In this document: positions 2 through 55,298 of the stretch, piece after piece
Layout of the letters: each line of letters starts with the position of its first letter
How positions within the stretch are numbered: the first letter of the stretch is position 1
DNA from: a virus
Strand: one strand, 5' to 3'
Length of the DNA: 64,000 nucleotides
Virus record (IMG/VR): IMGVR_UViG_3300025151_000031
Span: 1 to 64,000 of that record
Made by a program: the position numbers and the translations under genes
Notes under the pieces: model-generated
The model's database searches: none
What the model was told of the DNA's origin: nothing
The model's input: only the letters and a program-made list of their open reading frames with translations

Positions 2-3000
2 GCTAGAAAAATAAAAGGTACTGCTAAAGCTGTTGGGTTTGGAAATAGAGCATGGCAAGGAGCTAGAATAGGAAGACAGATTATTACAGGTGCTGGTTAT
101 GAAGCTGGAGTTGAAGCTAGACATCATTATAATCATTTAAAAGAAGAAATAATAAATGCTTGGACTAGAGAAAGAGGAAGAAAATTAACAGATGAAGAGT
201 TAGCGGAAATAGAAGAAATAGCTACTGCTTCTTCTAATGCTGTTTTTGCAACAAATTTAGCACTAGTAGGAGCTAGTAATATGTTAATGCTAGGAAAGTT
301 ATATGGTCCAGGCTATGCATTACAAAAAACAGCTACAGGTGCAGGTAAAGTTGCATTTACTACAGCTAAAACGGGTGAAAAAACTGCTAGGGCTGCGTAT
401 AGAAGTACAAGTAAATTTAGACAAACTTTAAAACAAGGAATAAGTAGAACAAAAAATGTATTAGGAGTTCCATTATATGAAGGGTTTGTAGAAGAAGGTG
501 GACAAAATGTAATTACTACTGCGCTCCATGATTATAATTTTCATAAATATGGAGATAGTAAAAAAAGAACAAAAAGTATGCTTGAAGCTGCTGTAGGAGG
601 CTTCAATGAAACATATGGAGAAGATGATGGTATGACAGAGGTGATGATGGGATTTATATTGGGTGCAATTGGATTACCAGGACAAGGAGGAAATATTATA
701 GCTACTCAAGAAAGACTTAAAGAGGTTCGTAAAAAAGAGCAGATGTCAGATTTTATGGCTGACTATTATAATAAGAATAAAGATTTAATGGCTGCAATAA
801 AAGCTAATGCAGATTTCATGACAGAAACGCAAGAACTAACTGCTTTAATGGATAAGGCTATGGCAGATGGTAATATAGCTGCTTTTAAAGATTTAGAAAA
901 CGATCAAATATTTTCTTATGTTAAGTCAAAATTAATGACAGGCCAATTTTCTGATATAAAAAGTGATGCTGAAGCTATTAGAGAAATGTCAGATCAAGAA
1001 TTTATGACGCAATTTGGTTACGATCAAAGTAATTTTTCAGATCCTTCAGAAATATCTATTAGAAAAAATCAAGCTGCAGACTCTATTATAGAAAGAGCTA
1101 GAAAAATACAAGAGGCTTATAAAGTAGTAGATCAGATATGGGATCCAGGAAATGCATGGACAAAAGATGAAAGAAATGAAATTAGAGATAGAATGGCGCA
1201 CGATCTTTCTGTTCTAGATAATGTAGATGAAAGAATGCATACTCTTGAAAATAGATTAGCAAAATTAACAGGAGGAGTTATTCAAGAAACTGAAGAAACA
1301 AAAGAAGCAGGAGCGACTAGAACAATTAGTTATAAGTATAGAAATAAAGAAGGGCAAGAACAAACTCGTACATTTACTATAGGAGACTTTTCAAACGGCT
1401 CTTTATTGTATCAATACCAACAACTTTCTGAAAAATTAAAAGGTGATATAACGCCTATAGAAGGCTTAACAGAAGAGCAAACTAAAGAAGTAATAGAAGC
1501 TCAATTAGAACAGCTTAGAGAGGCTATAAATGGTCGTACAGGAAGTCCTGAAATAGATTTAGCTAACCTATCTCCTGAAGAGATAAATCTTTTGTCTGCA
1601 TTTAGCGATCAATTAGACAATTGGATTAAACAAGATGACGCAGGAGGTGTTAAAAATCTTAAAGAGGTTATGCAAATCCTTAAAGATTTAAGACATTTAA
1701 GAGGAAGAAAGCAAGAGTTTATACAAAGATTTAATGAAATTGCATACGGTAAAAAAGCAAAACGTCAGTATATACAAAGAGTAGAAAGATATGTAGAAGA
1801 TATAGGTAAGGAAACAGCTATGGAGGGTATAAATCATCCTAGAGCTAGACAATTATTTAATAAATATGGTACAAGTGCTAAATTTAAAGTTGGAGATAAA
1901 TATTATAGATTTACTGAAGATGGAAACTTAATAGAAGAAGGAGATGACACTGCTACTCCTGTAGATTCTAGTATATTAAAAGATATTTCTCAGCAAGATA
2001 TTATTACAGATTCTCAAGAAAGAGCAAAGAAATTTATCGAGGCTTTAGATGCTATTAAAAAAGATAAAGGGGAGAAAGTAAAAAAGGTTATTAGACAAAT
2101 AGATGAAACTGAAAAAGAAGTAGAAGCTTTAATAGATAAAATTGTAGATCAGGGACTAGAAGATCAAGTAAAAACAGGAAGAAGTAAAGGAAAATTTATT
2201 AAACGTAAAGAGGTTAAGAAGACATTAGATAGTCTTAATGAACAAATAGATACAGGATTTAAACTTTTAGAAGAATTAGAACAAACTAAAAGAGACTTAC
2301 AAGCTCAAATAGAATACATAGAAAATCTTGTAAACACACATTACGATCCTCAATCACAAACTTTTGTTACAGATCCTATACAATTATATGAGACTGGGCA
2401 AGAAATGATTGTTGAATCTGCTAGTCAGCTTGGAGTCCTTGCAGATATACTTAGTCCTCAAGATATGACTATAGATCCTGGGGTAGCTGAACAAGTAGCT
2501 AACGAAATAATTGATTCTATAAATGAGTTTTCTAAGCAAAATGAAGAAGTATCACAAACTTTATCTGAAAAATTACAGCAATTAAGAGAATATAGAGATG
2601 TATTAGAAAAAAGTTTAATATCTAGGTTAAATGAAATGCCTGGATTAAGAGCTAGTGCTTATCCTCAATCTGAAAATATGAATGAATTGTATTTGGATAC
2701 AATTAATGATTTAGAGGTTAAGATATCAGAAATATTGCAGCAAGAAGAGGATATGAAAATACCCCCTGAAGATAGGATAGGTGCTACATTAAAGTTCCAA
2801 TTTGATATTCTTACAGGAAATATAGAATACCAAAAACATAAAGGCTTCCCTACTTATGAAGATTATAAAAGATTTATTAGTAAAAACCCTAGTGTATTTA
2901 GAGATCTAGATGCTTTAGGATTATCCGTGCTAAGAGAAACTGAAATAGCATTTGGAGAAGCTAGATTTTTAAGAAGAGAATTAGAAGCAACTGATCAAGA

Positions 3001-6000
3001 AATAGAAGAGTATAAACAAATACTAAAACAAATAGAAGCTTCTAAAGATCCTACTGTAGATAATCAATTGCATGCGGCAACTATGTTACAATCTGCATCT
3101 AAATATACTCAGGTTATTGAAGAAATGTTACAAAAAATGTTTGAACTTCAAACAAAAGTAATAGAGCCTAAAGCAGAAGAAAGCAAAGATAATTCTAGAG
3201 AGAAACCTTCTACAAAAGAAAAGAATTTAAAAAATCCTATTAGTAGAAATATTGATGAAAAAGATATTAGAGAAAAGGGAACAAAATTTAAAAATGTAGG
3301 AGGTAAAATATATTATAGACCTGATATTTCAAATACAGGATTTTCAAAAACTGCAGGAAATCATTATCAAGCCTTAATAGATTATGAAGATTTATCTACA
3401 ACTGATAAAGAAGGAAATTTGATACCAAAAGAAGGTCTAAGTGAGCAGGATATAGCAAAAAGAAATAATGCTGAAGCTCAATTAGTATTCTATAAAACTA
3501 CAGAACAATTTTTAGAATTAAGAAAAGACAGTAAATCAAAGGTAGGATTAATGCCTGTAGTATCTTCTAATATACCTAATAATTTAAAAGAAGAATTAGG
3601 ATCCCCTATAGATCAGGGTTCAACACCAACTGTAAAAGTAACCTCAGAGTCTGAAAGAATAAAAGCATTAGATAAAACATTAAATAAAGAAGATAGAGGC
3701 TTTGTAGATTTAATGCGAAAAAGAAAAGGAAGAAGTCAAGAAATAATTAACCAAACAATAAAGCAAAAAGCTGGTAATACTGCAGCAGGTAATCAATTAT
3801 TAGAAAGGTATAAAGCTGAAGACACATTATCAAATCCAGAAGGAAAAAGAGAAGCCCAATTAATTTCTGCATTTAGTTTATTATATACAAATAAGTTTCA
3901 ACCAGTAAGCGCAATTGAACCTGTTTTAGATGGTGAATCTGGACGTGCAAGTAAAGTTGACCAAACTATTAGAGAATATGAAGCTTGGAAAACAAGTGGA
4001 ACTGGTGGTAAAAATGCATGGTATAATACAACTACTAAATTATTTGATAATACAGGAGATATGAGTAGTTCAGAAACTGCTGATATAAAGCTTGTTTTAG
4101 TTTATACTAGTGGTAATAGAAAAGGTACTCCTGTTAGAGTAAATAACTCAGGAAAAATATCTAAAGATGGTAAAGGTCGTATTGTATATACATCTATGAT
4201 GGACTCTGATTTTTATTTAAAAGATGAAAATGGAGATTATCTTGTAGATAAAAAAGGAAATAAATTACCACGGTTTACTAATAATAATAATTTAACTCAA
4301 ACTGTAATAGATGCTAAAATACAAGAGCATAAGGATCTTAGAGAAAGTCTTATAGAAGAAGCTGAAGAAGGTAAGAAAACAAATAGAATTTTTACTATAA
4401 CTAGCTATAACCCAGGAATGCCTAATGTAATGAGTAAAGATGGAGCTCCTCTTTTATTTCCTGTAAGAGGTAGAGCAGTAGGTAAAAAGAAATCTTTAAA
4501 AGATGTTGATATTAAGATTGCAAATATTGTTAATAATGATGGCACATCTAATATTACTGTTGGTGGTGTAATATATGATATACCTAAACCTGGTATGGTA
4601 TATACTGTTATAAATGGTAATTTAGCACCTTTAAAAGTTAGAAATTTAAATGATTCTGAAGTTGACAGCATAGTTAATATGCTTAGGTTATTTGAAAAGA
4701 ATATGGAGTTGTTACAAGCTCAAGGGATAACAGGTGAAGAACTTATATCTCGTGCAGCTGTTATAGAAGGAGCTGATGATGCTCTTCCTATATTTGAATA
4801 TTTACGTCATATAATATATTATGGTCCTAATACTAACTTAGAAGGATTTGATAAACGTTTTAGACTTTCCTTTAATAAAAATCGTAAAGGGTATGTATAT
4901 GGAGAAAATGGATTTATAAGTCAGGCACAATTAAAAGCAAATGATCCTGCAGCTATTGCAGATTTTAAAAACTTTTTACGTACTAAAACACATCAAATAT
5001 CTAAATTTGCTGTAGATAAATCGGTAACTAAGGCTAAAGGAAAAGAAACTGTTTATACACCTTTTGTAGAAGTTTCTCTTAATGACGATCTTACTATAAA
5101 AGAAAAGAAAGTTTGGGCTAATTATAAAGAATATCTTTTACAAGAAAGAGAGGATACTGATTTTGCCCCTCCTCTTCAAACTAGTATGAATGAAGCTGAC
5201 GGGGACTTTACTGCACCACAAACTAAGTATAGATATTTAAGATATACTGCTGGTAAAAAGCAACGTAGTACTTTACAATCTAATAATCCTATTCCTTCAG
5301 TAGAAGCTCCTGTAGGTAAATATGAATACGGAGAAGTTCAATCTGCATCTTTAGCAGAAGAAAAAAGAACTATTGCAGCATTAAAAAATAAACAAAAAGT
5401 AACTATTGAAAATAAAGATCTTGGAATTCCACAAATTGTAGATCCTACTAAAAAGGGGGCTGTTAAATCTCTTAATTCTGTATATGGATTATTTGATAGT
5501 TCAGCACCAGAATTAGAAGATATGACTATATCTAAGTATGTTTCTTTATTAGAAAAAGATCTTGATGAATATGAAAATGAATTCTATTCAGTTCCTTTTT
5601 CAGACTTTACATTTGTTAAAAGAAGACCAGATGCAGAACAGGCGTTAGAAAAAATTAAAATGAATACATCTAAGTCTAATTCTAAAGCTGCAGATCAAAT
5701 GAAAAAGAATCAAGAATTTGATGAAAGAACTGGTAGTGATAGAGATTTCTTAGATTTATTTAAAGATGCACAAAAAACAATATCTGAAGGAGTAGATGAA
5801 TATACTTCTAAAGATTTAAAAGATGAAGATTTTGATGATGATAATTTTGATGACGATTCAGTAGACGTTGCTAATTTAGATGTAAGAGGTATAGAAGGAG
5901 GAACAACTAGATTACAAGTAGAGTCTTCTGAAAGAAGTGTGGAAGAGGTAATGAAAGAGATTAAAAAAGCTAAGGAAATGATTCCTTGGGCTGATATTGA

Positions 6001-9000
6001 ATTAGTTACAGGCTTTATAAAAGGAAATACTCCTTTTGTAGTAGGCCAGTCTAGAGGTTGGGGTAGAATTCTTGTAAGTAATTTAGGTCCTTCAGGCGTA
6101 GTTTATCACGAAGCATATCACCAAGTATGGAGAAATGCTATTCCAGTAAAATTAAGAAAGGCTGCAACAAGATATGTTAATAATTTAGATGGTATAGGTC
6201 GTACTTTTCAAGGAAAGAAAAAAGACTTTTCAAAATTTAACTCTCTTGAAGTAGAAGAATATTTAGCAGAAGAATTTAGAAAGTGGATTATAACAGGAGG
6301 TAAATATAAAAGTGAAATATATTCTGCCAAAAAGAAAGGTATTATAGCAAATATTTTTGATCGTTTAAAAAGACTATTAAGAAATCTTTTAGGATTAGAT
6401 AGTAATCTTAGACCTTCAGATGATATGTTAGAAGTAGCTGAATTATTTCAAGGTATAGCTGCAGGTGACTATAGTCGTTTAACTGAAATGGATACTATAG
6501 CTATTAAAGATGCTGATCAAGATTTAAATGAAGTTAAATTATCATCGAGAGAAATTTTTGATAATGATAAAATAGCTAATATGGCACTACTTCCAGATAA
6601 TAGAAATGGAAGAAAAACTAGCGCAAGGTTTTCTATGGATGTATTAAGTACTCTTACTAGACATTTTGGAGAATCATTATTTGAAAATGAAATACCTTTA
6701 AAAAATATTACTACTAGAGATCTAGATAAATTTACAACTCCTGAGAAAAAAGCAGAATTTAATACTAAAATAGAAAATGCTTATATCGCTGCCATAAGAA
6801 ATATGGTAAAAGAGTTAGGAACACTGGGTAAATTAAAAAGAGAAGCATGGATTAAAACAGGAGAAAAGAATACTCAATTAGAAGAAGATTTAAAGCGTAT
6901 TATATATCTTCGTAATTACTTAAAGTCAAACTATAGAAACGTTATAGAAGGTCATAGATCGTATTTAAATACCTTAGGATTAGATATCTCTCAAACTTAT
7001 GATAGTTTGACAGATACTATGGATATTACAGAACTAGATCGTACAAAAGATGTATTTGGAATAATGGAATCTTTTGAGTTTTCTAGTATTGCTACAACTC
7101 ATCCTATGATGAAGTTAATGATCGGTACTCTTCCAGGTTCATTTAATACTACTCAAACAAAAGGAGTAGTAGATTTTAATGAGGCTATGAATTTCTTATT
7201 TGAAAAGTTACAAGGTACTACAGATCTTAAAAGTCAATTACTTATATTAGAATCTTTAAAAGATACAAAACCTTGGATACAATCTTTATTAAATAGACTT
7301 AATCCAGATCTTTCTGGAACTTCTAATTTTACTTATAGTGAATTAAAAATACATAACTTATTTAATCAGACATTTTCTAAAACAAAAAATGAGTTTTTAA
7401 CTCAGCTTATAGATGAAGACGGTAATATTTATAGTGTAGATGCTAATCAAACAACTGTTGCAAATTTAAAAGGTGGGCAGTGGCTTGCTAATCTTATGGG
7501 GAAATTGAATGAAAAGGGATTAGTGAAATTGGATAAAAAAGGAGAAGTAAAAATTGATTTGACTCATAAAATTAAATTTGAAAGTTTAAATCAAAAAATA
7601 TCTATACTTGATTTTAGATCTAATCCTAAATTAAAAAATTATTTTTCAGGTGCTGCAGGTATAGAGTTTTTACAAGCATTTGGTATAGAGTTTACTAATC
7701 CTGAAGCTATGCTAGCCTCAACAGAAGAAATAGACGGTAAAGCTATTCCAGATATAATAAATGAAGCAGCTCTATGGATTATTAATCAAATTAGTTTGGA
7801 CAGAAATGCTGCAAATATTTATGATCAGAATTCTTTAGATATAAAAACTAGACTAGGTAAATTAATAAAAGCAGAAATGCTTTTTAGTGATGATGTGATA
7901 GAACACAGACATTTTAATCCTGAAGGAAAACCTATATATGGTATTACTTTAAATACCTATATGAGTAAAATAGCTAATCAAATAACAAATGGTATTTTAC
8001 CTAAACATTTAGATCCTAATTTTAATCCTTATACAACTAACTCTATTGTAGTAAGACAATTACCTAAAGGAGGAATTGTTAAAATGCAAGTTATAGAAGG
8101 TTTAAGAATAAATAAAATGGGTGATCAAGGAACCCTATCTAAAAATTTAACTCCTGCAGATAGAATAGCTTCTAATTTAAATTCTGTATTAAAGAATGGT
8201 GTATTTCCTATACTTAGAACAGGTGATTTAGGGACAGAATTTGGAGTAAAACTTCCATTTAATACATTTAGAAATATTGATAGTGCTAAAAAAGAAATAT
8301 TAGGTTATATTTTAGATGAAATTTTAGTGTCTCAAAAATTAAATACAGAGGGATTAGGAAGCGATATAAATAAATTTAGAGAGGACGCTAAAGATTTAAG
8401 AGTGTTTAAAGACATTCTTGCTTTATCTGATAATGATCTATTTAAAAATAATTTAAAACGAGTTTTACAAGGAGAACAAGATGTTTCTGAATTTATGACT
8501 ACGCACGGTGATCATATGTTTGAAATGGTTAAATTCTATTTAGAAGATCAAGCATCTGAAACCATAAAAATTTGGACAGAAAATAGAATAGTAGATAGTA
8601 TTGATCGTGGTTATTTTGATAATAATGCAATAGATAATTCTATTATTCAAAATATTGTAGGAGATATTAAAAACAAACGTAAGCTTACTGATGCCCAGTT
8701 AATAAAAGTAGCAGAAGCATTTGTTATAAATGATTTTATTGCAAATACAGAACAATTGAAGATATTTTTTGGTGATCCTGCTCATTATAAAGCTTTTTAT
8801 AAAAGAACAAAGGGTGCTGCGGGTACAAAGAAATTTGCTAGATCAGATGTATTTATAGATGAATGGTTAAACAAAGAAGAAAATAAAAGAAGAGACAATA
8901 AAGTTGCAGACGGAACTGCTGAGGTAGTTGTTATGGAAGATCCAATGTCTGAAAGTGTATGGAGCACTGAATATGAAAGATACTTAGGAGATCCAGGAAG

Positions 9001-12000
9001 ATTATACAGAACAAATCCTGAAGCAGATGCAAATGCTTGGGCTAATATGCACTTTTATAGAGAACTTATGATTAGAGTTGGTGATTGGACAGATCAACAA
9101 GAAGATTTATATAAAAAGATGTTTGATCCTAATCAAGAAGACTTAACTATAGAAGAATTAACTGCGTTCCCTCCATTAAAACCACAGTATTTTGGACCTC
9201 AAGTAACAGGAGAGGCATTTAGTCCTATGTATATGATGAAGTTATCTTTAACTCCATTATTTCCACAAATGACTGTTATGAATGGGCAAAGAACGCAATT
9301 AGCGGATCTTATGGATGATATGAGTGATAAGCAAATTGATATTGTTTTACATCCATCAGGAGTTAAAGTTGGGCACAAGGTAACAGAAGAAGGTATAACC
9401 CCTCCTTTTTATAACGAACAAGGAGTTATTAATAAAATAGATCCTGACAGTGCCAGCACAATAGATTTATCTTACTTTGGGGTACAGTTAGATATTTCTC
9501 CAAAACCAAAATCTTTTTCTACTATAGGAACACAAGCACGTACACACATACTTGGTAATTTATATCACAATGGTGTTCCTAAAGATTATCCTGTAAATGC
9601 AGCTATTAGCTGGGATAATTTAAATGAAATTGAAAAAATAGCTGCAAGTCCTGTTCATGCTAAGGCAGTTAGATATACTCAATTAGTTAATGGATTTTCA
9701 GTCCAAGCCAGACAAAAAGTATTAGATAAATTTAATCTAATACAAGAAAATGGGAAATATAAACTTAAAGATGGAGACATGTCTAAGTTTATAGACTTTA
9801 TTCAAGCTGAAATAGCAAAAAGAAAATGGCCTGAAAATATAGCTGAAGGAGTTAATTGGTTATTATCTAGAAATGAGAACGAAAGAGTATTTGATATCTT
9901 AGTTAATAAAGGTATGATTGAAACTCTTTTATTTTCAACCATAGGTAAGTCTGCTATTGCCCAAAAGTTTAAAGGGGATTTAAAAGTTCAAGTATCATCT
10001 ACTGGATTTGAAGTAACAGCAAGGGCTGTTAAACAAAAAGATTTAAAAGGCAACTTTGGACTTGGAACAGGTACTTTAGAGTTTTATCATAAAGAAGATA
10101 CTAATGATCGTAACTCTAAAACTCTTGGAATGGAGGTATATATGCCGCATTATTTTAAAGAGTATTTTGGACAAGACATGGAGATTAGACCTGACGGCAT
10201 TTATAGTGCAGAAGGTGTAAAAGTTGGGGACAATTCTTTACTTGAAATAATAGGATTCCGTATTCCTACTGATGGATTGCATTCAATAGAATTTATAAAA
10301 GTAAAAGGGTTTTTACCAGAAGCTGCTGGACCTATGATTGTAGTCCCTTCTGAAATTACTGTAAAAGCAGGATCTGACTTTGATATTGATAAACTTACTT
10401 TATATTTCCCATCTTATAAAAGATTATTTGATGGTACAATTGTTAAAAGAAGATATATTGATGGAGACACTAACAATGATGAAGTATTAGAACAACTTTA
10501 TAATCAAGTATATGGCCCTACTATTAATTATGCTAAAGAGTTAGATAGAAGCTTAGCAGAAGCAGATAGAAATAAAGAAGGAGATGAGGTATATGACTCA
10601 TCTATAGAGGATTTAATGAAGGCTATGTTTGGTGAAGAAGCATTCCAAGATGCTACAGAATATACAGAAGCAGAGTTAGATGTATTATTAAAGCAATTTA
10701 AAGCAAATGAAAACTTAGATCCTAAAACAAGAGAAGATTTTGTTATAGATCAATATAAAAAATTAAAAGACAGATTAAAGTATATTCCATCAGTACAAGA
10801 ATATATTAAAGAAAATAAAGGAAAACCAGCAGCAGAATTAAATCATCCAGGAGCTGTCCAAAATGAAATAATGGACATAATGAAAGATGTATTATCTGAT
10901 CCTGATTCGTATGAACAATTATTGCATCCTATTGGAATTAAAAGATTAGGAGATGTAGCTGATGTTGTTAGAGCGGCTACAAATCAACCTATAAGATCTG
11001 AAAAAGATAATTTAGGATACGCAGAACTTATATCTTTTCCTAATAGACATAAAGTAAATACAGAACTTATGGTTGGTAAAAGAGGCTTAGGTATTGCTGC
11101 AGTAAATGCAACACACCAAGTAAAGAGCCAACTAGCTAATTTACATGTTCCACACAATAAAATAATAAACCATTTTGGAAATGAATTTAAAATAGGATTA
11201 CATTTTGAGGGATTTGAGTCTTCTAGTCAAGGTGGAGTAATTGATTTAGGGAGGATATATGATTCACAAGGAGAGAATATTAGCGAGGTTTTATCTGAAC
11301 TTGTAAATGCTTTTGCAGATGTATCAGAAGATCCTATAATATTAGATTTGAACTTAGTACAAGAAACAGCTTCTGCTGCATACTTTTTAATAAGAGCTGG
11401 CGTTCCAGTAGAAACTGTAGTTTTATTTTTAAATCAGCCTATTATAAAAGAATACATTCAAAGAAGAAATATAAATAATAGTAAATTTTTAAATGCAAGA
11501 GGTAAAGATGTACCTGTTCATGATTTAGTAGACTCTTTATTAAATAAATATGAAGCAGAAGGTATAGCTAAATTATCTAAAACTCCTACTATCTTTTCTC
11601 AAGATAGATTACAGTTAATGATGGGAAAAACTTTTGTGGAAATGAAAGCTAGTCAAGAAAATGCACAAGAAAAATATTTAGATGATCAGCTTCAAATTTT
11701 TAATCATTTTAGAATGTATGATGCTATAGGAACTAAGTTAACTCAATTAACTATAGGAACTTCTCATGATACTAAAGCAGCTAAAAATAGAAATCATGCT
11801 AAATTATTATTAGATAGAAGCGATGAAATTATTAGCTCAGAATATTTTGTAAATAGTAAAAAATTATTAGATAATACCCACTTAGGAGAATTCAGAAATA
11901 CAGTGGATACATCAAGCAAAATGTTTAATAATTTCTTTATTAGTGAATTAGCAGGAGTAAGGCATGTAGCACAATTAGATAAAATATTTGAAGTTTTTTC

Positions 12001-13834
12001 TGATCCTGAAATTAGATGGGCAGATAATAAACGACTAGCAGCATTAAATGAAGCAGAAAACGACTTTATGGTAGCTGTAATGTCTTATGCATTAAAATCT
12101 GAAGGTGATGTAAGGTTATATGATAGAATAGAATCTTTATTCCAGGGACCAAATAGCCTTCCTATACAAGTTAAAAAACTTCAACAATTAGGTAAGTATC
12201 AAGCTAATCCTTTTGTAGCAGGATTATTACCTATTATTGATGAAACTAGAGGGGATTTAAAGAAAACAGATAATATAAAATATTATCATAGAATTTTAAA
12301 TACATATGAAAAGAATTTACTTAGAGATGCATTCTTAGAGTTACCTGAAAATTTCCAAAACGCATTAATAGACTTTGGAATACTACAATCTGGTTTGTCT
12401 TCTACTAATGTATCCTTTTTAAATCTAGTTCCTAATGAAAAATATGCATCTAGAGCAGTAAATATTATTCCTCAAATGAGAAATTTAAAAATTGATGCTA
12501 CTAATGAAGGGCTATCTAATTTTTATAATAACTTCTTTAAAAATAATGCAGAGAATTCTAATGTAGTTCCAAGGGTACCATATAGTAAAAGAGCAAAAGA
12601 TAAATTAGGCAATACTTTAGATAGACCTAAAATTGTAGAAAGCGATTCTTTGGGAAGGTTCCCGTATTTAGCTGTAACTGTTCAGTCAGTTGATGCTAAA
12701 ACTGCAAAGTTAATGAGAGACAGAGGAGAAAAAGTACCTACAAAGGTAAAACTTTTTAAAAACACGTATAGATTAGGCCCACCTTTTACTCTTCCAAATG
12801 GAGATCAAATAAGATTTTGGCAATATATGGAAGTAGATAAATTAGGTAATGGTAAATTCTTAAAAGAATATCCTCCTAATAATCAAACTTCTGTTATACC
12901 AGGTAATCTTTCTTCAAATAGAAGCGTAGAAATTATAAGCAAACTAGTACATAAACCGTATCCACTTAAAATGGATCCTTGGCAAATATCTTCTATAAGT
13001 AATGGACAAACAACATCTTTAGCAAATCCTGTTAAAAAATTAACTTCAGGTACATATGTATTACCTAATGCTAGTATAATAGAAATTGCATTAGAAGGAA
13101 GCGTTACTGTTAAAGACTTAAGAAGTTTATCTGAAAAAAGTGTATTTGCCAATAGATTAGGATATAGAAATTGGGATACTTTAGTAAGATCTATTAATAG
13201 TGGAAAAAATACAATACCTAAAAAATGGTTAAAAAATGAAACTGCAATAGATGTACATAGAATTGAACATAGAATAGTTCCTCCTAACCCTGAAAATAAA
13301 ATACAATCTGACTTATCAGTTAGATTTACTCCTAAAGAAGTAGAAGAGTTAGATGGTTGGGGAGCAGGGCCTGCAGGAGGACCAATGGTAAAGGCTGTTA
13401 AAGAAAAATTAGAACAAGAAATTGAAAAGCAAATAGATGAAGGTAAATCTACATTTATTGTAGATCTAAGCCCTGGAATGGGATTAATGGCCGCAGATGT
13501 TCTTATTAGAAAACAAAGAGAATTAGCTCGTATTAACCAAAATATAAGTATAGTTGGAGTACGACCTTTTAGATCTCAACCAAACAAATGGCCTAAAGGC
13601 TGGCAAGAAGAATATAAATTAATTGTAAGATTATTAGAAAAAAATCCTAACTTTGTAAAAACTTTATATAAAGATCCTAAAACTAAACAAGAAGCAGGAG
13701 AACTTTATTCTAAAGGATCTTCATGGATTGTATCTAAAGCAAAAACTGAAATAGATATTAATTTAAATGAAATCAAAGAACTATTAGAACTGGAAGCTAA
13801 TGACAGACTAGATAGTCAAGAATGTAATCCTTAA
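2..13834 (+). CDS. Giant virion RNA polymerase polyprotein (5' end outside window)
   Basis: The frame is open from the first complete codon at position 2, so the Met at 281 is internal and at least 4610 residues are visible. In order: helical, coiled-coil-rich region (to about nt 3200); beta-rich and mixed region; an acidic Asp-rich linker near nt 5830; a zincin-like metallopeptidase with HEAYH at 6107-6121 and an EVEEYLAEEF segment near 6250 that can supply the third ligand; the RNA polymerase core with GSDFDID (aspartates at 10376-10390), preceded by a GFRIPTDGLHS block that parallels the conserved RPPTLH/NADFDGD region of cellular RNAPs; and a C-terminal SLOG-like domain (about 13315-13830). 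Known: crAss-like phages carry such a single-chain RNAP in the virion and inject it to transcribe early genes. Inference: the zincin may process the chain. It ends 3 nt before the next giant gene. Length far exceeds the roughly 2200-residue phi14:2 enzyme, so this is a fused form. Confidence 0.9.
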   Translation, partial: ARKIKGTAKAVGFGNRAWQGARIGRQIITGAGYEAGVEARHHYNHLKEEIINAWTRERGRKLTDEELAEIEEIATASSNAVFATNLALVGASNMLMLGKLYGPGYALQKTATGAGKVAFTTAKTGEKTARAAYRSTSKFRQTLKQGISRTKNVLGVPLYEGFVEEGGQNVITTALHDYNFHKYGDSKKRTKSMLEAAVGGFNETYGEDDGMTEVMMGFILGAIGLPGQGGNIIATQERLKEVRKKEQMSDFMADYYNKNKDLMAAIKANADFMTETQELTALMDKAMADGNIAAFKDLENDQIFSYVKSKLMTGQFSDIKSDAEAIREMSDQEFMTQFGYDQSNFSDPSEISIRKNQAADSIIERARKIQEAYKVVDQIWDPGNAWTKDERNEIRDRMAHDLSVLDNVDERMHTLENRLAKLTGGVIQETEETKEAGATRTISYKYRNKEGQEQTRTFTIGDFSNGSLLYQYQQLSEKLKGDITPIEGLTEEQTKEVIEAQLEQLREAINGRTGSPEIDLANLSPEEINLLSAFSDQLDNWIKQDDAGGVKNLKEVMQILKDLRHLRGRKQEFIQRFNEIAYGKKAKRQYIQRVERYVEDIGKETAMEGINHPRARQLFNKYGTSAKFKVGDKYYRFTEDGNLIEEGDDTATPVDSSILKDISQQDIITDSQERAKKFIEALDAIKKDKGEKVKKVIRQIDETEKEVEALIDKIVDQGLEDQVKTGRSKGKFIKRKEVKKTLDSLNEQIDTGFKLLEELEQTKRDLQAQIEYIENLVNTHYDPQSQTFVTDPIQLYETGQEMIVESASQLGVLADILSPQDMTIDPGVAEQVANEIIDSINEFSKQNEEVSQTLSEKLQQLREYRDVLEKSLISRLNEMPGLRASAYPQSENMNELYLDTINDLEVKISEILQQEEDMKIPPEDRIGATLKFQFDILTGNIEYQKHKGFPTYEDYKRFISKNPSVFRDLDALGLSVLRETEIAFGEARFLRRELEATDQEIEEYKQILKQIEASKDPTVDNQLHAATMLQSASKYTQVIEEMLQKMFELQTKVIEPKAEESKDNSREKPSTKEKNLKNPISRNIDEKDIREKGTKFKNVGGKIYYRPDISNTGFSKTAGNHYQALIDYEDLSTTDKEGNLIPKEGLSEQDIAKRNNAEAQLVFYKTTEQFLELRKDSKSKVGLMPVVSSNIPNNLKEELGSPIDQGSTPTVKVTSESERIKALDKTLNKEDRGFVDLMRKRKGRSQEIINQTIKQKAGNTAAGNQLLERYKAEDTLSNPEGKREAQLISAFSLLYTNKFQPVSAIEPVLDGESGRASKVDQTIREYEAWKTSGTGGKNAWYNTTTKLFDNTGDMSSSETADIKLVLVYTSGNRKGTPVRVNNSGKISKDGKGRIVYTSMMDSDFYLKDENGDYLVDKKGNKLPRFTNNNNLTQTVIDAKIQEHKDLRESLIEEAEEGKKTNRIFTITSYNPGMPNVMSKDGAPLLFPVRGRAVGKKKSLKDVDIKIANIVNNDGTSNITVGGVIYDIPKPGMVYTVINGNLAPLKVRNLNDSEVDSIVNMLRLFEKNMELLQAQGITGEELISRAAVIEGADDALPIFEYLRHIIYYGPNTNLEGFDKRFRLSFNKNRKGYVYGENGFISQAQLKANDPAAIADFKNFLRTKTHQISKFAVDKSVTKAKGKETVYTPFVEVSLNDDLTIKEKKVWANYKEYLLQEREDTDFAPPLQTSMNEADGDFTAPQTKYRYLRYTAGKKQRSTLQSNNPIPSVEAPVGKYEYGEVQSASLAEEKRTIAALKNKQKVTIENKDLGIPQIVDPTKKGAVKSLNSVYGLFDSSAPELEDMTISKYVSLLEKDLDEYENEFYSVPFSDFTFVKRRPDAEQALEKIKMNTSKSNSKAADQMKKNQEFDERTGSDRDFLDLFKDAQKTISEGVDEYTSKDLKDEDFDDDNFDDDSVDVANLDVRGIEGGTTRLQVESSERSVEEVMKEIKKAKEMIPWADIELVTGFIKGNTPFVVGQSRGWGRILVSNLGPSGVVYHEAYHQVWRNAIPVKLRKAATRYVNNLDGIGRTFQGKKKDFSKFNSLEVEEYLAEEFRKWIITGGKYKSEIYSAKKKGIIANIFDRLKRLLRNLLGLDSNLRPSDDMLEVAELFQGIAAGDYSRLTEMDTIAIKDADQDLNEVKLSSREIFDNDKIANMALLPDNRNGRKTSARFSMDVLSTLTRHFGESLFENEIPLKNITTRDLDKFTTPEKKAEFNTKIENAYIAAIRNMVKELGTLGKLKREAWIKTGEKNTQLEEDLKRIIYLRNYLKSNYRNVIEGHRSYLNTLGLDISQTYDSLTDTMDITELDRTKDVFGIMESFEFSSIATTHPMMKLMIGTLPGSFNTTQTKGVVDFNEAMNFLFEKLQGTTDLKSQLLILESLKDTKPWIQSLLNRLNPDLSGTSNFTYSELKIHNLFNQTFSKTKNEFLTQLIDEDGNIYSVDANQTTVANLKGGQWLANLMGKLNEKGLVKLDKKGEVKIDLTHKIKFESLNQKISILDFRSNPKLKNYFSGAAGIEFLQAFGIEFTNPEAMLASTEEIDGKAIPDIINEAALWIINQISLDRNAANIYDQNSLDIKTRLGKLIKAEMLFSDDVIEHRHFNPEGKPIYGITLNTYMSKIANQITNGILPKHLDPNFNPYTTNSIVVRQLPKGGIVKMQVIEGLRINKMGDQGTLSKNLTPADRIASNLNSVLKNGVFPILRTGDLGTEFGVKLPFNTFRNIDSAKKEILGYILDEILVSQKLNTEGLGSDINKFREDAKDLRVFKDILALSDNDLFKNNLKRVLQGEQDVSEFMTTHGDHMFEMVKFYLEDQASETIKIWTENRIVDSIDRGYFDNNAIDNSIIQNIVGDIKNKRKLTDAQLIKVAEAFVINDFIANTEQLKIFFGDPAHYKAFYKRTKGAAGTKKFARSDVFIDEWLNKEENKRRDNKVADGTAEVVVMEDPMSESVWSTEYERYLGDPGRLYRTNPEADANAWANMHFYRELMIRVGDWTDQQEDLYKKMFDPNQEDLTIEELTAFPPLKPQYFGPQVTGEAFSPMYMMKLSLTPLFPQMTVMNGQRTQLADLMDDMSDKQIDIVLHPSGVKVGHKVTEEGITPPFYNEQGVINKIDPDSASTIDLSYFGVQLDISPKPKSFSTIGTQARTHILGNLYHNGVPKDYPVNAAISWDNLNEIEKIAASPVHAKAVRYTQLVNGFSVQARQKVLDKFNLIQENGKYKLKDGDMSKFIDFIQAEIAKRKWPENIAEGVNWLLSRNENERVFDILVNKGMIETLLFSTIGKSAIAQKFKGDLKVQVSSTGFEVTARAVKQKDLKGNFGLGTGTLEFYHKEDTNDRNSKTLGMEVYMPHYFKEYFGQDMEIRPDGIYSAEGVKVGDNSLLEIIGFRIPTDGLHSIEFIKVKGFLPEAAGPMIVVPSEITVKAGSDFDIDKLTLYFPSYKRLFDGTIVKRRYIDGDTNNDEVLEQLYNQVYGPTINYAKELDRSLAEADRNKEGDEVYDSSIEDLMKAMFGEEAFQDATEYTEAELDVLLKQFKANENLDPKTREDFVIDQYKKLKDRLKYIPSVQEYIKENKGKPAAELNHPGAVQNEIMDIMKDVLSDPDSYEQLLHPIGIKRLGDVADVVRAATNQPIRSEKDNLGYAELISFPNRHKVNTELMVGKRGLGIAAVNATHQVKSQLANLHVPHNKIINHFGNEFKIGLHFEGFESSSQGGVIDLGRIYDSQGENISEVLSELVNAFADVSEDPIILDLNLVQETASAAYFLIRAGVPVETVVLFLNQPIIKEYIQRRNINNSKFLNARGKDVPVHDLVDSLLNKYEAEGIAKLSKTPTIFSQDRLQLMMGKTFVEMKASQENAQEKYLDDQLQIFNHFRMYDAIGTKLTQLTIGTSHDTKAAKNRNHAKLLLDRSDEIISSEYFVNSKKLLDNTHLGEFRNTVDTSSKMFNNFFISELAGVRHVAQLDKIFEVFSDPEIRWADNKRLAALNEAENDFMVAVMSYALKSEGDVRLYDRIESLFQGPNSLPIQVKKLQQLGKYQANPFVAGLLPIIDETRGDLKKTDNIKYYHRILNTYEKNLLRDAFLELPENFQNALIDFGILQSGLSSTNVSFLNLVPNEKYASRAVNIIPQMRNLKIDATNEGLSNFYNNFFKNNAENSNVVPRVPYSKRAKDKLGNTLDRPKIVESDSLGRFPYLAVTVQSVDAKTAKLMRDRGEKVPTKVKLFKNTYRLGPPFTLPNGDQIRFWQYMEVDKLGNGKFLKEYPPNNQTSVIPGNLSSNRSVEIISKLVHKPYPLKMDPWQISSISNGQTTSLANPVKKLTSGTYVLPNASIIEIALEGSVTVKDLRSLSEKSVFANRLGYRNWDTLVRSINSGKNTIPKKWLKNETAIDVHRIEHRIVPPNPENKIQSDLSVRFTPKEVEELDGWGAGPAGGPMVKAVKEKLEQEIEKQIDEGKSTFIVDLSPGMGLMAADVLIRKQRELARINQNISIVGVRPFRSQPNKWPKGWQEEYKLIVRLLEKNPNFVKTLYKDPKTKQEAGELYSKGSSWIVSKAKTEIDINLNEIKELLELEANDRLDSQECNP

Positions 13835-13837
13835 ATT

Positions 13838-16800
13838 ATGGCATGTAGAGTAATAAGAGATAGCGCAGATAATGTAGTAGAAGTTTTTGCTCAAAACGGG
13901 CAACCTTCTTTACTTTTTCAAAGTTTAAAAGGCATTTTAGACAATAATGCTAATGATGCATATAAAGCATATTTAAAAACTAGAACCTCTAGTTTTAGAT
14001 CTAAATTTGCAGACTTTAATAATTTTGACGAAAATGGTGAATTTGCATTTGAAGCTAATCAACTACAAAGAGTCGTAGATGATTTAGGAAAAATTAAAAA
14101 GAAAGATATAAAATCTGAAACAGAACAAGCTATACAAAGCTATGATCTTATAGATGAAAACGGAAATCCTAGAGTTTTTAATAATCCACAAGTAGCTGCA
14201 GATATAGAGCAAAGAATTAAACAAGACTATCCTAATTTACAATTAAAATCTACTACAGTTGATAATAAAACTATACTTAAAGTAGGAGAAAATAGTCAAT
14301 TTGATGCTAATAATATTTTTTATCAACTTGAAAACGATGACTTAAGAGCTGCAAAAGACACGTTAGATTCTAAAATGAAATCTTTTCTATCTCATATAGG
14401 GGTAGATATTAAACTTGTAGACAGTTTAACAGATAGAAATGGTGAAGTGCTATCTGGAATAGCTAAAGCAGACATGTTAAGCAAAGTAATACAAGTCGTA
14501 GAAAACAAAGCTGATGTATCTACTCTCCCTGAAGAAGCAGCCCACTTTTTTGTAGAGATATTAAAATCTACAAACAATCCTTTATATAATTCAATGAATA
14601 ATCTAGTTGAAGGGTATGAACTTTTTGACAAAGTTGTAAGTGAGTATGGAAGTAATCCTATGTATCAAAATGAAGACGGGACTCCAAACATGGAAAAAAT
14701 AAGAGACGAGGCTATTGGTAAATTAATAGCAAGAGAAATAGTTGACCAACACAATAAAGATGAGGACATAGAGAAATTAGGAAGATTTAAAAGATGGTTT
14801 GCTAAGGTAATGAATGCTATTAAAAAGATGTTTGGGGGAGTATTTAAAAATCCATATCAAAGAGCAGCCTATCAAATGTTAAATACTTCTATTAAAGAGT
14901 ATAAAGATATTTCTAGGTCTATACAATCTACAGATCAATACTTACAACAAGAAAATCCTTCTACAGAAGTAGTTAAACCAGTAGGGCATAGTCAACAAGA
15001 TATTGTAGACTCTATTTTAAGAGATCATAACAATATAAAAATGAGAGCTATAGATAAAACAGATCTAAAGCTTAGTAAAGTGATTACAGAACAAGATGAC
15101 GACCTTACTATGAACATGTATGAGTATACTGATCCTGAAACGGGACAGACACATACAATATCTAAAAGGGTTAGTTTTAGAAATGCTGCAAACTTTGCAA
15201 GAAAGTTTAGATATGACATGGCTAAAATAAAAGAAATAAATGGCTCTGTACGATCTATTCATGCAAGAAATAATGGTACACACTTACACGGCGTTTCTCA
15301 AATGCTAGCAGAGTATTATGGTAGTAGATCTAATGCAAAATTTGTAGAAGTTATTGATACAAATGGCGAAGGAATAAAAAGTATTGGGGACATAAAAACA
15401 TTTGCAAATACTCAAATAAAAATAGGGGAAACTCCATTTAATAATTTAAAAAAGGGAGTTAGTAAGGTAATACAACAAATAAATAAAGAACAAGAAAGAA
15501 TAGATCCTAAAGGAAAAGCTAAAATATTAACAGAAGCTGTAGTATATGATAGATTAAACGATGAAGCGGGTACTATAGATTTACTAGTAGTATTTTCAGA
15601 TGGTTCTACAGGTATATTTGATTGGAAATTTATAGTTAATCCTGCTCCTAGATACAACGTACCAAAAAGATACGGGGATAAAACAAAGCTAGCAGATAAA
15701 GCTATATTTGAATCTAAAATGGATGGGTGGAATACTCAAATATCAGCATATAAACAAATGCTAAGTAAAATACATGGATCTAAAAAAGTTAGATTTACAC
15801 GTATAATACCTGCGCATGCACAATTTGCAGTAAAAAACTATATGAAAAAGGATTTTACTCCAATAAATAAGGTGGAAGCTATTATGATGGGAAGGGACCA
15901 AAATGAAATACTGGACCAGATCTCAGTAGCATTAGAGCAAACTGATTATAAAGGAATAAATAAATTACTTGAAAAATTTTACGATAAAAGAAGAAACCTT
16001 AAGATACAACTAAGAAATGTAAAAGGTAAAAAGAAAGTAAAGTTTGAAAAGCTTAGATCTGAAGCAGCTAAAGTTGAGCAGACTATACAAGCTTTAACTG
16101 TACAAAGAAATGTAATGGATGTAATTTTAAATGCGGGTAGAAGAATAGCATTAATTGGAGATAAAGTTGGAATTAGTGATCCTACTCATCCAGATTATTT
16201 AGAATTAGATGATTTAGTTGACGCATTAGAAGATTTGGCTACTTTTGAAGAGTTAGCTGCTAACACTGCAATCTATTTAAAAGATTTAAGATCTAGTAAA
16301 GATGCAGAAATAAGAAAATCTGCTGCTGCCATACAAAAAGCCGTAGACAGAGCTACTGGTATTATAGAACGTAACGTTGAAGTTATAAAACAAGGAATGT
16401 TTGACAGGCTAACTACGAAAGCTGATAAAATGGATGGAGAAGATCTTACAGAATCCCCAAAAGAATTAGGGTTTTTTGATCGTAATGGTAGACAAATGAG
16501 TCAAATGCCTCATCCTATATTTAGAGTAGGTTATAATCGTATATTAAAATCTTTTAATAAAATTAAAGGAGCTACAGAAGGGTTGAAAGGAGAAGAAGAT
16601 GAACCTGGAACTATAATGCATGAACTAAAACTTTTAAAAAATTGGAGCAAATCTAAATACGGTAAAGAAAGTTTACAAAAAGCTTATCGTATGATGATTA
16701 AAGATAATATTGTAAAAGATGAAAAAGGAAAAGAAACTATATTATCTAGAACATTAGCTGCTAAATTTGGTTCTGATTTTTATCAATCAGTAAGACAAAA

Positions 16801-21113: not shown

Positions 21114-22292
21114 TTAAAGCTGAGTTAATTCAGTAAGAGTCTTACTGTCTTCTTTAGCTAAAGAGTCATACTCTTCAACTATCTTTTTACGCATCTCAGC
21201 CCATTCTTCATCAGTTTTAGCTGCATAAGTAGAACTATGATATATAGATCCATTTACACCTGCTAGCGAAGAGTGTACAAAATATTGAAGACATCTAGCT
21301 GCACCTGTTTCATCATCAGGCACCGCACCAATATGCATTGGGTCTACAAAAATGTTATGTATCTCACCACTTATACAGTTAATGTACTCTAAACCACCAA
21401 AATGAAGACCTTTAACACATGACATACGATCATTAGTGTTAACATAGCTCCAATCAGGTAATCTATGAGTACAACCAACTTTTATAAAATGATTTGGTTT
21501 ATCATAACCATTGTTGCCTTCGCAAAAGAAAGAATCACCGCCTCTACCCATAATAGCAGGCTGAAACAATCTTTCTTCTACATACTTTGGTAGTCCTTCT
21601 GACTCTATTTCACCAGTGTCAACGTTAAATGTTCTTTTGTACCGTGGTACTTCTTGACATTCACCGTTTTCGTCTGCTTCAAATTTAGTCAAAACTTCTT
21701 CAGATACTTTGTAACCATTTAGTAAACCTTCTTTGGTTATTTTCATTTGATACATAGTAGCTCTTCTTTCTGCAACTTCTTCGCTTAAACCATGTTCTTC
21801 CATCAGCTCTTTCTTTAATTGTGGATGAACATACTTAAGATTAATATAACTAAAGAATCTTTCACAAAATTCTTTACCCCATCCTTTCTTCATTTTAGTA
21901 CGAAGAACAGGGTTTCTTAACCATCTAGTCCACATTTTAACTAATGGCATAAAATCTAATCCTTTGTCCATAGACTCATAGATTCTTTCTACCAATGCTT
22001 CTGGCATCGGGATAGATGATACTATACCATTGTATTGTAAGAAAAACTCACCTGTAGCTTTGTTTACATGAATGTGTTCACACTTATCTTGAATAGTTTT
22101 AGTATAATCTACTATGGTAAGAGCTTCAAAAGCGCCTAAAGCAACTCTGTAGTCTTCCATGTTTTCTGCATTATTAGCTGTTTCAGCTATATCCTGCATT
22201 TTTGCATAGACTTCTTTATTGAAGTCTATACAAAACGGGGTATCCCCATAAGATCCTGAGATCTTATCATCGATAACGTTTATTGATATCAT
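21114..22292 (-). CDS. rIIB-like protein (392 aa)
   Basis: Partner of the rIIA-like gene immediately upstream (2-nt gap). Recognisable features of phage rIIB-like proteins are the N-terminal block with FEALTIVDYTK and the C-terminal segment DRMSCVKGLHFGGLEYINCISGEIHNIFVDP, which parallels the GLHVGSLEYA...V.VNP pattern of the family. The middle region IKMW..WLRNP and the AERRATMYQMKITKEG helix are lineage specific. In T4, rIIA and rIIB are membrane-associated and affect lysis inhibition and exclusion by lambda Rex; the biochemical role of the family is unresolved, and the same role here is not shown. Confidence 0.75.
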   Translation of the reverse strand: MISINVIDDKISGSYGDTPFCIDFNKEVYAKMQDIAETANNAENMEDYRVALGAFEALTIVDYTKTIQDKCEHIHVNKATGEFFLQYNGIVSSIPMPEALVERIYESMDKGLDFMPLVKMWTRWLRNPVLRTKMKKGWGKEFCERFFSYINLKYVHPQLKKELMEEHGLSEEVAERRATMYQMKITKEGLLNGYKVSEEVLTKFEADENGECQEVPRYKRTFNVDTGEIESEGLPKYVEERLFQPAIMGRGGDSFFCEGNNGYDKPNHFIKVGCTHRLPDWSYVNTNDRMSCVKGLHFGGLEYINCISGEIHNIFVDPMHIGAVPDDETGAARCLQYFVHSSLAGVNGSIYHSSTYAAKTDEEWAEMRKKIVEEYDSLAKEDSKTLTELTQL

Positions 22293-22294
22293 AA

Positions 22295-54729: not shown

Positions 54730-55296
54730 ATGGCAAGTATAAACTTATCATTAACTTCAGATTGTAGATTATTAACTTATAAGATTACTTCACCAATACC
54801 AACAGTAGAAGGAGCAGAGTCTCAGGATCAACTAGAAAATACTGAAAATGTAGTCGCAATTGAAATTTACAATAATGGAGTTTTAGTCTCTAATACAGAT
54901 ACAGCAATACTTAATTATGCTAATGGAGACATATTTACTAATACAACAACTATATCTGTTCCAGAAGTTATAGGATCAGATGCTGGTATAGTTACAGTTT
55001 TAATGAGAAATGCTGAAGGAGAAACTACAAGTTCTGCTATTCTATGTTCTTGTGAACTGGATTGTTGTTTAGCACAAAAAGTTTTAGATCTAACAAATTG
55101 CACAGATTGTGATTCAAAGTGTAGTGATCAATTAGTTATAAGTCAAAAGATATTTTTATACATGGAGTCTATAAGGACTCTTTTAGGTAATTTAGGAGGA
55201 GACATAACAATTAATCAAGGAATCATATCTCAGGCACTAGATACGTATAATGCTGCTAAAGCATTATGTTCTGGTAGCTGTGGTTGCAACTGTTAA
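54730..55296 (+). CDS. Cysteine-rich virion protein (188 aa)
   Basis: N-terminal half strand-rich (MASINLSLTSDCRLLTYKITSPIP, ATVPEVIG-type strands), C-terminal half with many cysteines (CSCELDCCLAQKVLDLTNCTDCDSKC and CSGSCGCNC at the end). Such Cys pairs could form disulphides or bind metal in an extracellular virion part. It precedes a Cys-rich giant appendage protein, suggesting a shared assembly. Confidence 0.55.
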   Translation: MASINLSLTSDCRLLTYKITSPIPTVEGAESQDQLENTENVVAIEIYNNGVLVSNTDTAILNYANGDIFTNTTTISVPEVIGSDAGIVTVLMRNAEGETTSSAILCSCELDCCLAQKVLDLTNCTDCDSKCSDQLVISQKIFLYMESIRTLLGNLGGDITINQGIISQALDTYNAAKALCSGSCGCNC

Positions 55297-55298
55297 TC

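What the first reader, a model, noticed from the sequence alone, without database searches (positions are those of the whole stretch)
2..13834. crAss-like virion RNA polymerase embedded in an over 4600-residue polyprotein
The visible frame has 4610 codons and no start inside the window. The DFDID core (10376-10390) identifies the single-chain virion RNAP, but it sits inside a chain about twice the length of the phi14:2 enzyme and fused to other modules, so it probably needs processing or works as a multi-part injected machine.
Basis: partly seen in the sequence, partly recalled or inferred. Interest (0 to 1): 0.75.

Follow-up and report, generated by a model that had tools for sequence, protein, structure and literature searches.

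The report
Phage polymerase chain with cysteine-tagged ends
[quoted passage not shown] the surprise is that it and the partner protein behind it contain almost no cysteine except one at the two ends that face each other, a pattern seen across the whole virus group that suggests the injected proteins are tied head to tail into one thread.

Summary
Frame 2-13834 is open for 4610 codons and runs off the contig's left end. By alignment with complete relative L018 about 245 residues are missing, so the full protein is about 4,855 aa. DFDID lies at 10376-10390 in a domain matching phi14:2 virion RNAP by sequence (E 2.6e-28) and fold (E 2.4e-33).

The size is ordinary: fused RNAP chains of about 3.8-5.8 kaa are common in Crassvirales, and RNAPs up to ~6000 aa are published. 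Order here: gp47-like module, zincin (HEAYH), RNAP core, YpsA/SLOG tail.

New: P0001 (4610 aa) has one cysteine, third from the C-terminus. The next protein (1796 aa) has one, at position 3. In relatives, 221 of 222 genuine adjacent junctions between consecutive chain proteins carry a cysteine on both facing ends. The last C-terminus never does (0/163). Four fully fused chains (~5.5 kaa) have none. gp47-type proteins encoded on the opposite strand keep theirs. Best reading: cysteine-free injected proteins joined head to tail, probably by disulfides, with gene fusion as the alternative link. The disulfide is inferred. Processing at the zincin seam is undecided. Two lone RNAP genes break the rule.

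The parts
2..13834 (+). P0001, giant chain protein (gp47-like module + zincin + RNAP + SLOG tail), 4610 aa visible, 5' end beyond the contig
   Evidence: open frame; full-length relative L018 4686 aa, residue 2 = L018 residue 247
80..1282 (+). N-terminal module (residues 27-427), shared with crAss001 gp47 and with Leptolyngbya phage Lbo-JY46
   Evidence: tblastn E 4e-11 (Lbo-JY46), 1e-6 (crAss001)
5975..6472 (+). zincin-type metallopeptidase domain (residues 1992-2157) at the seam between the gp47-like and RNAP modules
   Evidence: profile found in 81 sequences; AlphaFold2 topology helix-3 strands-HExxH helix-Glu helix, pLDDT 83.5; no significant Foldseek match
6107..6121 (+). HEAYH motif (residues 2036-2040); always HExxH or HExxE in homologues
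6473..6662 (+). predicted seam (residues ~2158-2220), where the gene is broken in split lineages
   Evidence: inference from L082/L080 alignment and from ends of crAss001 gp47 and Dulem41 protein 1
6887..12595 (+). virion RNAP module (residues ~2296-4198)
   Evidence: phmmer to 6vr4; homologous to separate RNAP proteins such as L025, L034; AF2 model of 2880-3960 matches 6vr4 E 2.4e-33 and QDE-1 E 7.5e-4
10376..10390 (+). DFDID metal-binding catalytic motif
   Evidence: alignment A2, three invariant Asp
13382..13684 (+). YpsA-type SLOG domain (residues 4461-4561), seen only in the window and L018-L020
   Evidence: Pfam PF06908, 30.9 bits against cut-off 27.7; 33.8 bits on the C-terminal piece
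13823..13825 (+). the only cysteine codon (TGT) of P0001, third residue from the C-terminus (...SQECNP)
13838..19228 (+). P0002, next chain member (gp49 / phi14:2 gp65 type), 1796 aa
   Evidence: 26% identical to cr108_1 protein 3 over its length; phmmer 1.2e-62; same position as gp65/gp49
13844..13846 (+). the only cysteine codon (TGT) of P0002, residue 3 (MACRVIRD...)

Best explanation
P0001 is the fused gp47-like/RNAP member of the virion RNAP machinery of a crAss-like phage, and P0002 is the following gp49-type member. SHOWN from sequence: the chain proteins are nearly cysteine-free, and a cysteine sits at each end that faces another chain member, whatever the gene arrangement; the free ends lack it. 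INFERRED: the facing cysteines form a disulfide (here ...SQEC-NP with MA-C-RVIR...), so gp47, gp50 and gp49 modules leave the capsid as one covalent head-to-tail thread. Cysteine is avoided elsewhere so that nothing else cross-links during passage through the tail and envelope. The reducing cytoplasm then frees the subunits and the RNAP refolds and transcribes early genes. Where two modules are fused in one gene, the peptide bond replaces the cysteine pair at that seam. The seam zincin may cut there after delivery (a separate, weaker inference).
For: RNAP identity: 6vr4 by sequence and fold; tblastn to 107 phage records, mostly Crassvirales; crAss-type TerL, portal and MCP in the window. Cysteine rule: set 1, 93 of 97 adjacent junctions have Cys on both facing ends, the other 4 not being junctions; independent set 2, 128 of 129. 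Last C-terminus 0/77 and 0/86; first N-terminus 28 cases, all in RNAP-side ORFs without a long upstream neighbour, 18 of them with a partner-like C-terminal-Cys ORF on the same locus. Opposite-strand gp47 of crAss001, cr106_1, DAC15, cr85_1, cr128_1 and cr116_1: one Cys, 2-4 residues from the C-terminus. Fully fused chains L152, L155, L160, L162 (5472-5639 aa): no Cys. gp47|gp50-gp49 chain L127: Cys only at its one junction. crAss002 fits once its start is corrected to MSC. 51 of 111 complete chains have exactly two Cys per junction. Internal Cys 0.013% in the set 1 IMG/VR proteins against 1.56% in control ORFs. TGT and TGC are both used and gene spacing varies, so selection acts on protein. 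crAss001 virions contain inter-subunit disulfides in the tail (PMC10172136). N4-like vRNAPs lack cysteine, proposed as needed for passage (PMC3715699, PMC2784036).
Against: No disulfide has been observed between these proteins. L119 and L125 are lone RNAP ORFs with 10-14 internal Cys and none at the ends. L214's upstream protein has its Cys 24 residues from the end. Gut lineages carry some internal Cys. Disulfides would have to form after assembly in a reducing cytoplasm. With four terminal Cys per set, mispairing is possible unless packing orders the ends. Some loci in set 1 are near-duplicates.
Confidence: 0.6

Rival explanations
1. Processed polyprotein: the zincin domain at the seam cuts gp47-like from RNAP during assembly or after injection, and the terminal cysteines play another role.
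For: All 78 fused chains with a readable seam keep the domain, against 5 of 13 split ones. In split L082 exactly the zincin-bearing 256 aa of its fused sister L080 are replaced. HE and the third ligand Glu are invariant and position 5 is only H or E. P1 DdrB is cleaved before packaging (PMC5512222).
Against: N4 vRNAP also carries a zincin and is packaged uncut (PMC5512222). crAss001, Dulem41 and others keep the zincin although the genes are already separate. Only 3 (5) independent contrasts on the tree, not significant. It does not explain the cysteines. 43 fused chains have HExxE, whose activity is unknown.
Confidence: 0.3
2. The terminal cysteines bind a metal or cofactor jointly, or anchor the chain to portal or tail proteins, instead of forming direct disulfides between chain members.
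For: Direct S-S bonds were not observed (no call can show them); paired Cys could coordinate a metal.
Against: Anchoring would not predict Cys only on chain-facing ends, none on free ends and none when modules are fused. One Cys per end gives only two ligands per junction and no other conserved residue lies nearby.
Confidence: 0.15
3. The terminal cysteines are a by-product of translation signals at the gene junctions (nucleotide-level constraint).
For: Most junctions are short or overlapping.
Against: gp47-type proteins on the opposite strand, away from the RNAP gene, keep the terminal Cys. Both Cys codons are used; offsets vary from 1-9 and 2-9.
Confidence: 0.03
4. Ordinary giant crAss RNAP gene with nothing further; cysteine depletion only reflects passage through the tail, as proposed for N4.
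For: Giant fused RNAPs are published (PMC10136315, PMC7886860); N4 gp50, T7 gp15 and gp16 lack Cys.
Against: Depletion alone predicts no cysteine at the ends either, yet they are retained in 221 junctions.
Confidence: 0.1

Closest known systems
Virion RNAP gp66 of Cellulophaga phage phi14:2 (PDB 6vr4) with gp67 and gp65
   Same: same RNAP fold and DFDID motif; same order of modules; gp67 ends ...TIC, gp66 starts MAC and ends ECK, gp65 starts MSC
   Different: three separate genes; no zincin found in gp67; no SLOG tail
Giant RNAP proteins of Suoliviridae (delta crAss-like phages, e.g. cr4_1, cr130_1)
   Same: gp47-like module, HEAFH-type zincin and RNAP fused in one chain of 4272-5801 aa, followed by a gp49-type protein
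   Different: more internal cysteines; several use TAG as a sense codon; no match to the window's SLOG segment
gp47, gp50 and gp49 of crAss001, detected by mass spectrometry in virions
   Same: homologous modules; terminal Cys at facing ends
   Different: gp47 encoded on the other strand; proteins separate
N4 virion RNAP (gp50)
   Same: giant injected RNAP with a zincin, no internal cysteine
   Different: T7-type catalytic fold, single chain, no terminal cysteine
Polyvalent proteins (Iyer et al. 2017, PMC5512222)
   Same: zincin-centred multidomain injected proteins
   Different: crAss-like phages not mentioned there; no cysteine-junction rule found in it

Membership tests
crAss-like virion RNAP (phi14:2 gp66 family) | sequence homology to 6vr4 across the catalytic region | tested here: met
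   E 2.6e-28, residues 2848-4195
crAss-like virion RNAP (phi14:2 gp66 family) | DxDxD metal-binding motif | tested here: met
   GSDFDIDK at 3459, Asp invariant in 12 phages
crAss-like virion RNAP (phi14:2 gp66 family) | two double-psi beta-barrels in one chain | tested here: inconclusive
   AF2 model (pLDDT 78.8) matches 6vr4 E 2.4e-33 and QDE-1 E 7.5e-4; barrels not traced individually
crAss-like virion RNAP (phi14:2 gp66 family) | packaged in the virion and active in early transcription | not testable with these tools
   shown for relatives only (PMC10172136, PMC7886860)
Crassvirales | crAss-type TerL, portal, major capsid protein | tested here: met
   phrog_6681 E 8e-137, phrog_6547 E 5e-126, phrog_11589 E 1e-86; best portal tblastn hits are crAss-like phages
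Zincin-like metallopeptidase (polyvalent MPTase) | HExxH helix, downstream ligand Glu, N-helix plus three strands | tested here: met
   HEAYH, invariant E115 of A6, AF2 topology; no significant PDB fold match
Zincin-like metallopeptidase (polyvalent MPTase) | proteolytic activity | not testable with these tools
   none
Self-processing polyprotein | cleavage products | not testable with these tools
   needs virion or infected-cell mass spectrometry
Head-to-tail cysteine-linked chain (proposed) | Cys on both facing ends, none on free ends, none in full fusions | tested here: met
   two lone RNAP genes are exceptions
Head-to-tail cysteine-linked chain (proposed) | disulfide between consecutive proteins | not testable with these tools
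   none
N4-type virion RNAP | T7-like single-subunit RNAP homology | tested here: not met
   the only significant matches are 6vr4 and the two-barrel RNAP QDE-1

The most novel reading that the evidence does not exclude
Crassvirales and at least one cyanophage deliver their giant virion proteins as a single covalent thread made of cysteine-free proteins joined head to tail by one disulfide per junction; the reducing host cytoplasm takes the thread apart. Gene fusion and the terminal cysteine pair are interchangeable links, and the seam zincin and disulfide reduction may be interchangeable release mechanisms.
Probability: 0.55. Interest if true: 0.92.

Novelty: new variant of a known kind. Interest (0 to 1): 0.8.

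Why it matters
How a podovirus pushes several proteins of 150-550 kDa through a channel under 50 angstroms wide, in order and followed by DNA, is open; the crAss001 structure paper (PMC10172136) says the order is likely set by packing and by the proteins' interactions with one another, but not which. A covalent chain would set order and ratio: pulling one end brings the rest. The cysteine rule gives a cheap, decisive test on published phages, a way to correct gene starts (crAss002 gp33), and a signature for finding injected protein chains in other phages. It also changes the question about the giant ORF, from 'how is it cut?' to 'why must it stay joined until delivery?'.

Tried and rejected
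(1) The search for related loci with the whole P0001 found nothing; alignments of the RNAP core worked. (2) My first idea, that HExxH is kept only in fused genes because they must be cut, failed: 43 fused chains have HExxE, crAss001 and Dulem41 keep HExxH though split, and the tree gives too few independent contrasts. (3) 'Degenerate' zincins turned out to be a strict H-or-E alternative, not decay. (4) Nucleotide-level origin of the terminal cysteines rejected by opposite-strand genes and mixed codons. (5) Apparent exceptions to the rule were traced: L055, L038 and L112 frame breaks; L044/L062 next ORF not a chain member; L001, L103, L107, L206 breaks in or beside the DFDID codons (a group I intron identified only in L001); L083 and L032 probably a TAG stop read through by my code; L119 and L125 remain unexplained. 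(6) Foldseek for the zincin gave no significant match. (8) Paper searches found no report of terminal cysteines in crAss-like RNAP proteins; the library lacks most subscription papers, including the phi14:2 RNAP paper, so absence of a report is weak evidence.

Full report
WHAT IS THERE. The frame 2-13834 is open for 4610 codons and the window begins at the first base of a 67,298-base virus record. The nearest complete relative, L018 (54% identical in the core), has a 4686-aa protein, and P0001 residue 2 aligns with its residue 247. About 245 residues are therefore missing and the full chain is near 4,855 aa. Directly behind it, three bases after the stop, starts P0002 (13838-19228, 1796 aa). 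The window also carries crAss-type terminase, portal and capsid genes, so this is a Crassvirales-type phage. Its closest named relative for these two proteins is cr108_1, but identity is only about 23-26%.

ANATOMY OF P0001. Residues 27-427: a module shared with crAss001 gp47 and with a Leptolyngbya phage. Residues 1992-2157: a zincin domain with HEAYH at 2036. Residues ~2296-4198: the RNAP, with DFDID at 3459. Residues 4461-4561: a YpsA/SLOG domain above Pfam's cut-off, seen otherwise only in L018-L020. The RNAP assignment rests on phmmer to 6vr4 (E 2.6e-28), an alignment across 12 phages with invariant catalytic Asp residues, and an AlphaFold2 model of residues 2880-3960 (pLDDT 78.8, pTM 0.80). 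The model's only significant PDB matches are phi14:2 RNAP (E 2.4e-33) and QDE-1 (E 7.5e-4), both two-barrel RNAPs (the barrel count is established knowledge of these families).

IS THE FUSION UNUSUAL? No. Nine Suoliviridae reference genomes encode fused chains of 4272-5801 aa, and most IMG/VR relatives do too. phi14:2, crAss001, cr111_1, DAC15, cr106_1 and Dulem 41 have the same modules as three genes. Four phages fuse all three modules (L152, L155, L160, L162). The review PMC10136315 gives up to ~6000 aa for these RNAPs and PMC7886860 describes large multidomain transcription proteins.

THE SEAM DOMAIN. A profile from the window finds the zincin in 81 sequences. All keep His-Glu, and the fifth position is His or Glu only, with about eight changes between the two on the RNAP tree. 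The downstream ligand Glu is invariant in the 41-row alignment. The predicted topology (helix, three strands, HExxH helix, Glu helix) fits the description of polyvalent-protein metallopeptidases in PMC5512222. Foldseek gave no significant match. All 78 fused chains with a readable seam have the domain and 8 of 13 split ones lack it, but the tree gives only three well-supported independent contrasts. The sharpest case is L082 against fused L080 (about 47% identical throughout): residues 1815-2070 of L080, which hold the zincin, are replaced by 239 unmatched residues, a stop and start, and 61 unmatched residues. So the seam is where nature breaks the chain. Whether the zincin cuts there is not shown. 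By contrast N4 vRNAP, also zincin-bearing, is packaged uncut (PMC5512222).

THE CYSTEINE RULE. P0001 has one cysteine in 4610 residues, third from the end (...SQECNP); P0002 has one in 1796, at position 3 (MAC...). At the 1.27% of other window proteins, 58 and 23 would be expected. The same holds through the group. In the first 98 loci, 93 of 97 adjacent junctions have Cys within 10 residues on both facing ends; the four others are two frame breaks and two places where the next ORF is not a chain member. In a second, separately fetched set (129 distinct chains), 128 of 129. The C-terminus of the last member never has one (0/77, 0/86). The N-terminus of the first has one only in 28 RNAP-side proteins with no long neighbour directly upstream. 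For 18 of these a partner-like ORF with a C-terminal Cys is on the same locus, often on the other strand; for the other 10 none was seen within the stretch held. Control ORFs of the same contigs: 14 of 143 C-termini and 18 of 143 N-termini have Cys within 10 residues, 5 both; overall Cys 1.56% against 0.013% inside the first set's IMG/VR chain proteins and 0.12% in the second set.

TESTS THAT COULD HAVE FAILED. Displaced genes: gp47-type proteins on the opposite strand in crAss001, cr106_1, DAC15, cr85_1, cr128_1 and cr116_1 each have exactly one Cys in the stretch read, 2-4 residues from the C-terminus. Full fusions: L152, L155, L160 and L162 (5472-5639 aa) have no Cys at all. Partial fusion: L127 (gp47 | gp50-gp49) has Cys only at its one junction. 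Another family: crAss002 gp32 has one Cys at -2, and gp33 appeared to fail until an in-frame MSC... start 32 codons downstream was seen. Outside Crassvirales: Leptolyngbya phage Lbo-JY46 has a 1552-aa protein ending in its only Cys followed by a 2748-aa protein whose only Cys is residue 4, with no RNAP match in either. Of 111 complete chains, 51 have exactly two Cys per junction, 299,192 aa in all. Both Cys codons are used. True exceptions: L119 and L125, lone RNAP genes with many internal Cys and none terminal.

HOW IT MOST LIKELY WORKS. Injected proteins of N4 and T7 also avoid cysteine (N4 gp50-gp52, T7 gp15 and gp16), and this was proposed for N4-like vRNAPs as a need of passage through tail and periplasm (PMC3715699, PMC2784036). 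Against that background, a cysteine kept at each facing end, and only there, points to a bond between consecutive proteins. crAss001 virions do contain inter-subunit disulfides in the tail (PMC10172136), and cr108_1, cr111_1 and cr128_1 carry genes annotated as thioredoxin-like. I infer a disulfide-joined thread gp47-gp50-gp49, ejected in order and released by reduction. A fused gene supplies the same link as a peptide bond. The bond, its timing and its reduction are inferred, not shown.

VERDICT. Observation confirmed; the RNAP reading is right; the length is ordinary for the group; processing is open. The terminal-cysteine rule is, as far as the held literature shows, undescribed, strongly supported by sequence, and directly testable on cultured phages.

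Noticed in passing
window 6107-6121 and loci L018-L097: Zincin motif is strictly HExxH or HExxE (81/81) with about eight switches on the RNAP tree; the Glu form is a possible new metal-site variant.
   Followed up: partly
L001:13964-14282: Group I intron (RF00028) sits inside the DxDxD codons of the cr108_1 RNAP gene; the RNAP ORFs of L103, L107 and L206 break at about the same place (no Rfam match there), and cr116_1 (L264) also has a split RNAP gene.
   Followed up: partly
window 13382-13684: YpsA/SLOG domain fused to the RNAP C-terminus, only in this lineage (L018-L020); cr130_1's giant protein is annotated DprA-like, possibly a related domain.
   Followed up: partly
L100:11161-24067: Leptolyngbya phage Lbo-JY46 has a two-protein Cys-tagged chain with gp47-like and gp49-like parts but no detectable RNAP.
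   Followed up: partly
L266:11243-11340: crAss002 gp33 start looks misannotated; the in-frame ATG giving MSCTPSNPK fits the cysteine rule.
   Followed up: yes
L119:5420-13549 and L125:6404-13111: Lone RNAP genes with 10-14 internal cysteines and none terminal: possible lineages without the chain, or non-virion RNAPs.
   Followed up: no
window 13838-19228, P0002 residues ~230-240: Where phi14:2 gp65 and several relatives have a second HExxH, the window has EEAAH: a possibly decayed second zincin.
   Followed up: no
window 54730-59216: Two adjacent late proteins are rich in cysteine (12 in 188 aa, 40 in 1310 aa), opposite to the ejected proteins.
   Followed up: no
window 21114-25093: rIIA/rIIB-like pair on the minus strand.
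   Followed up: no
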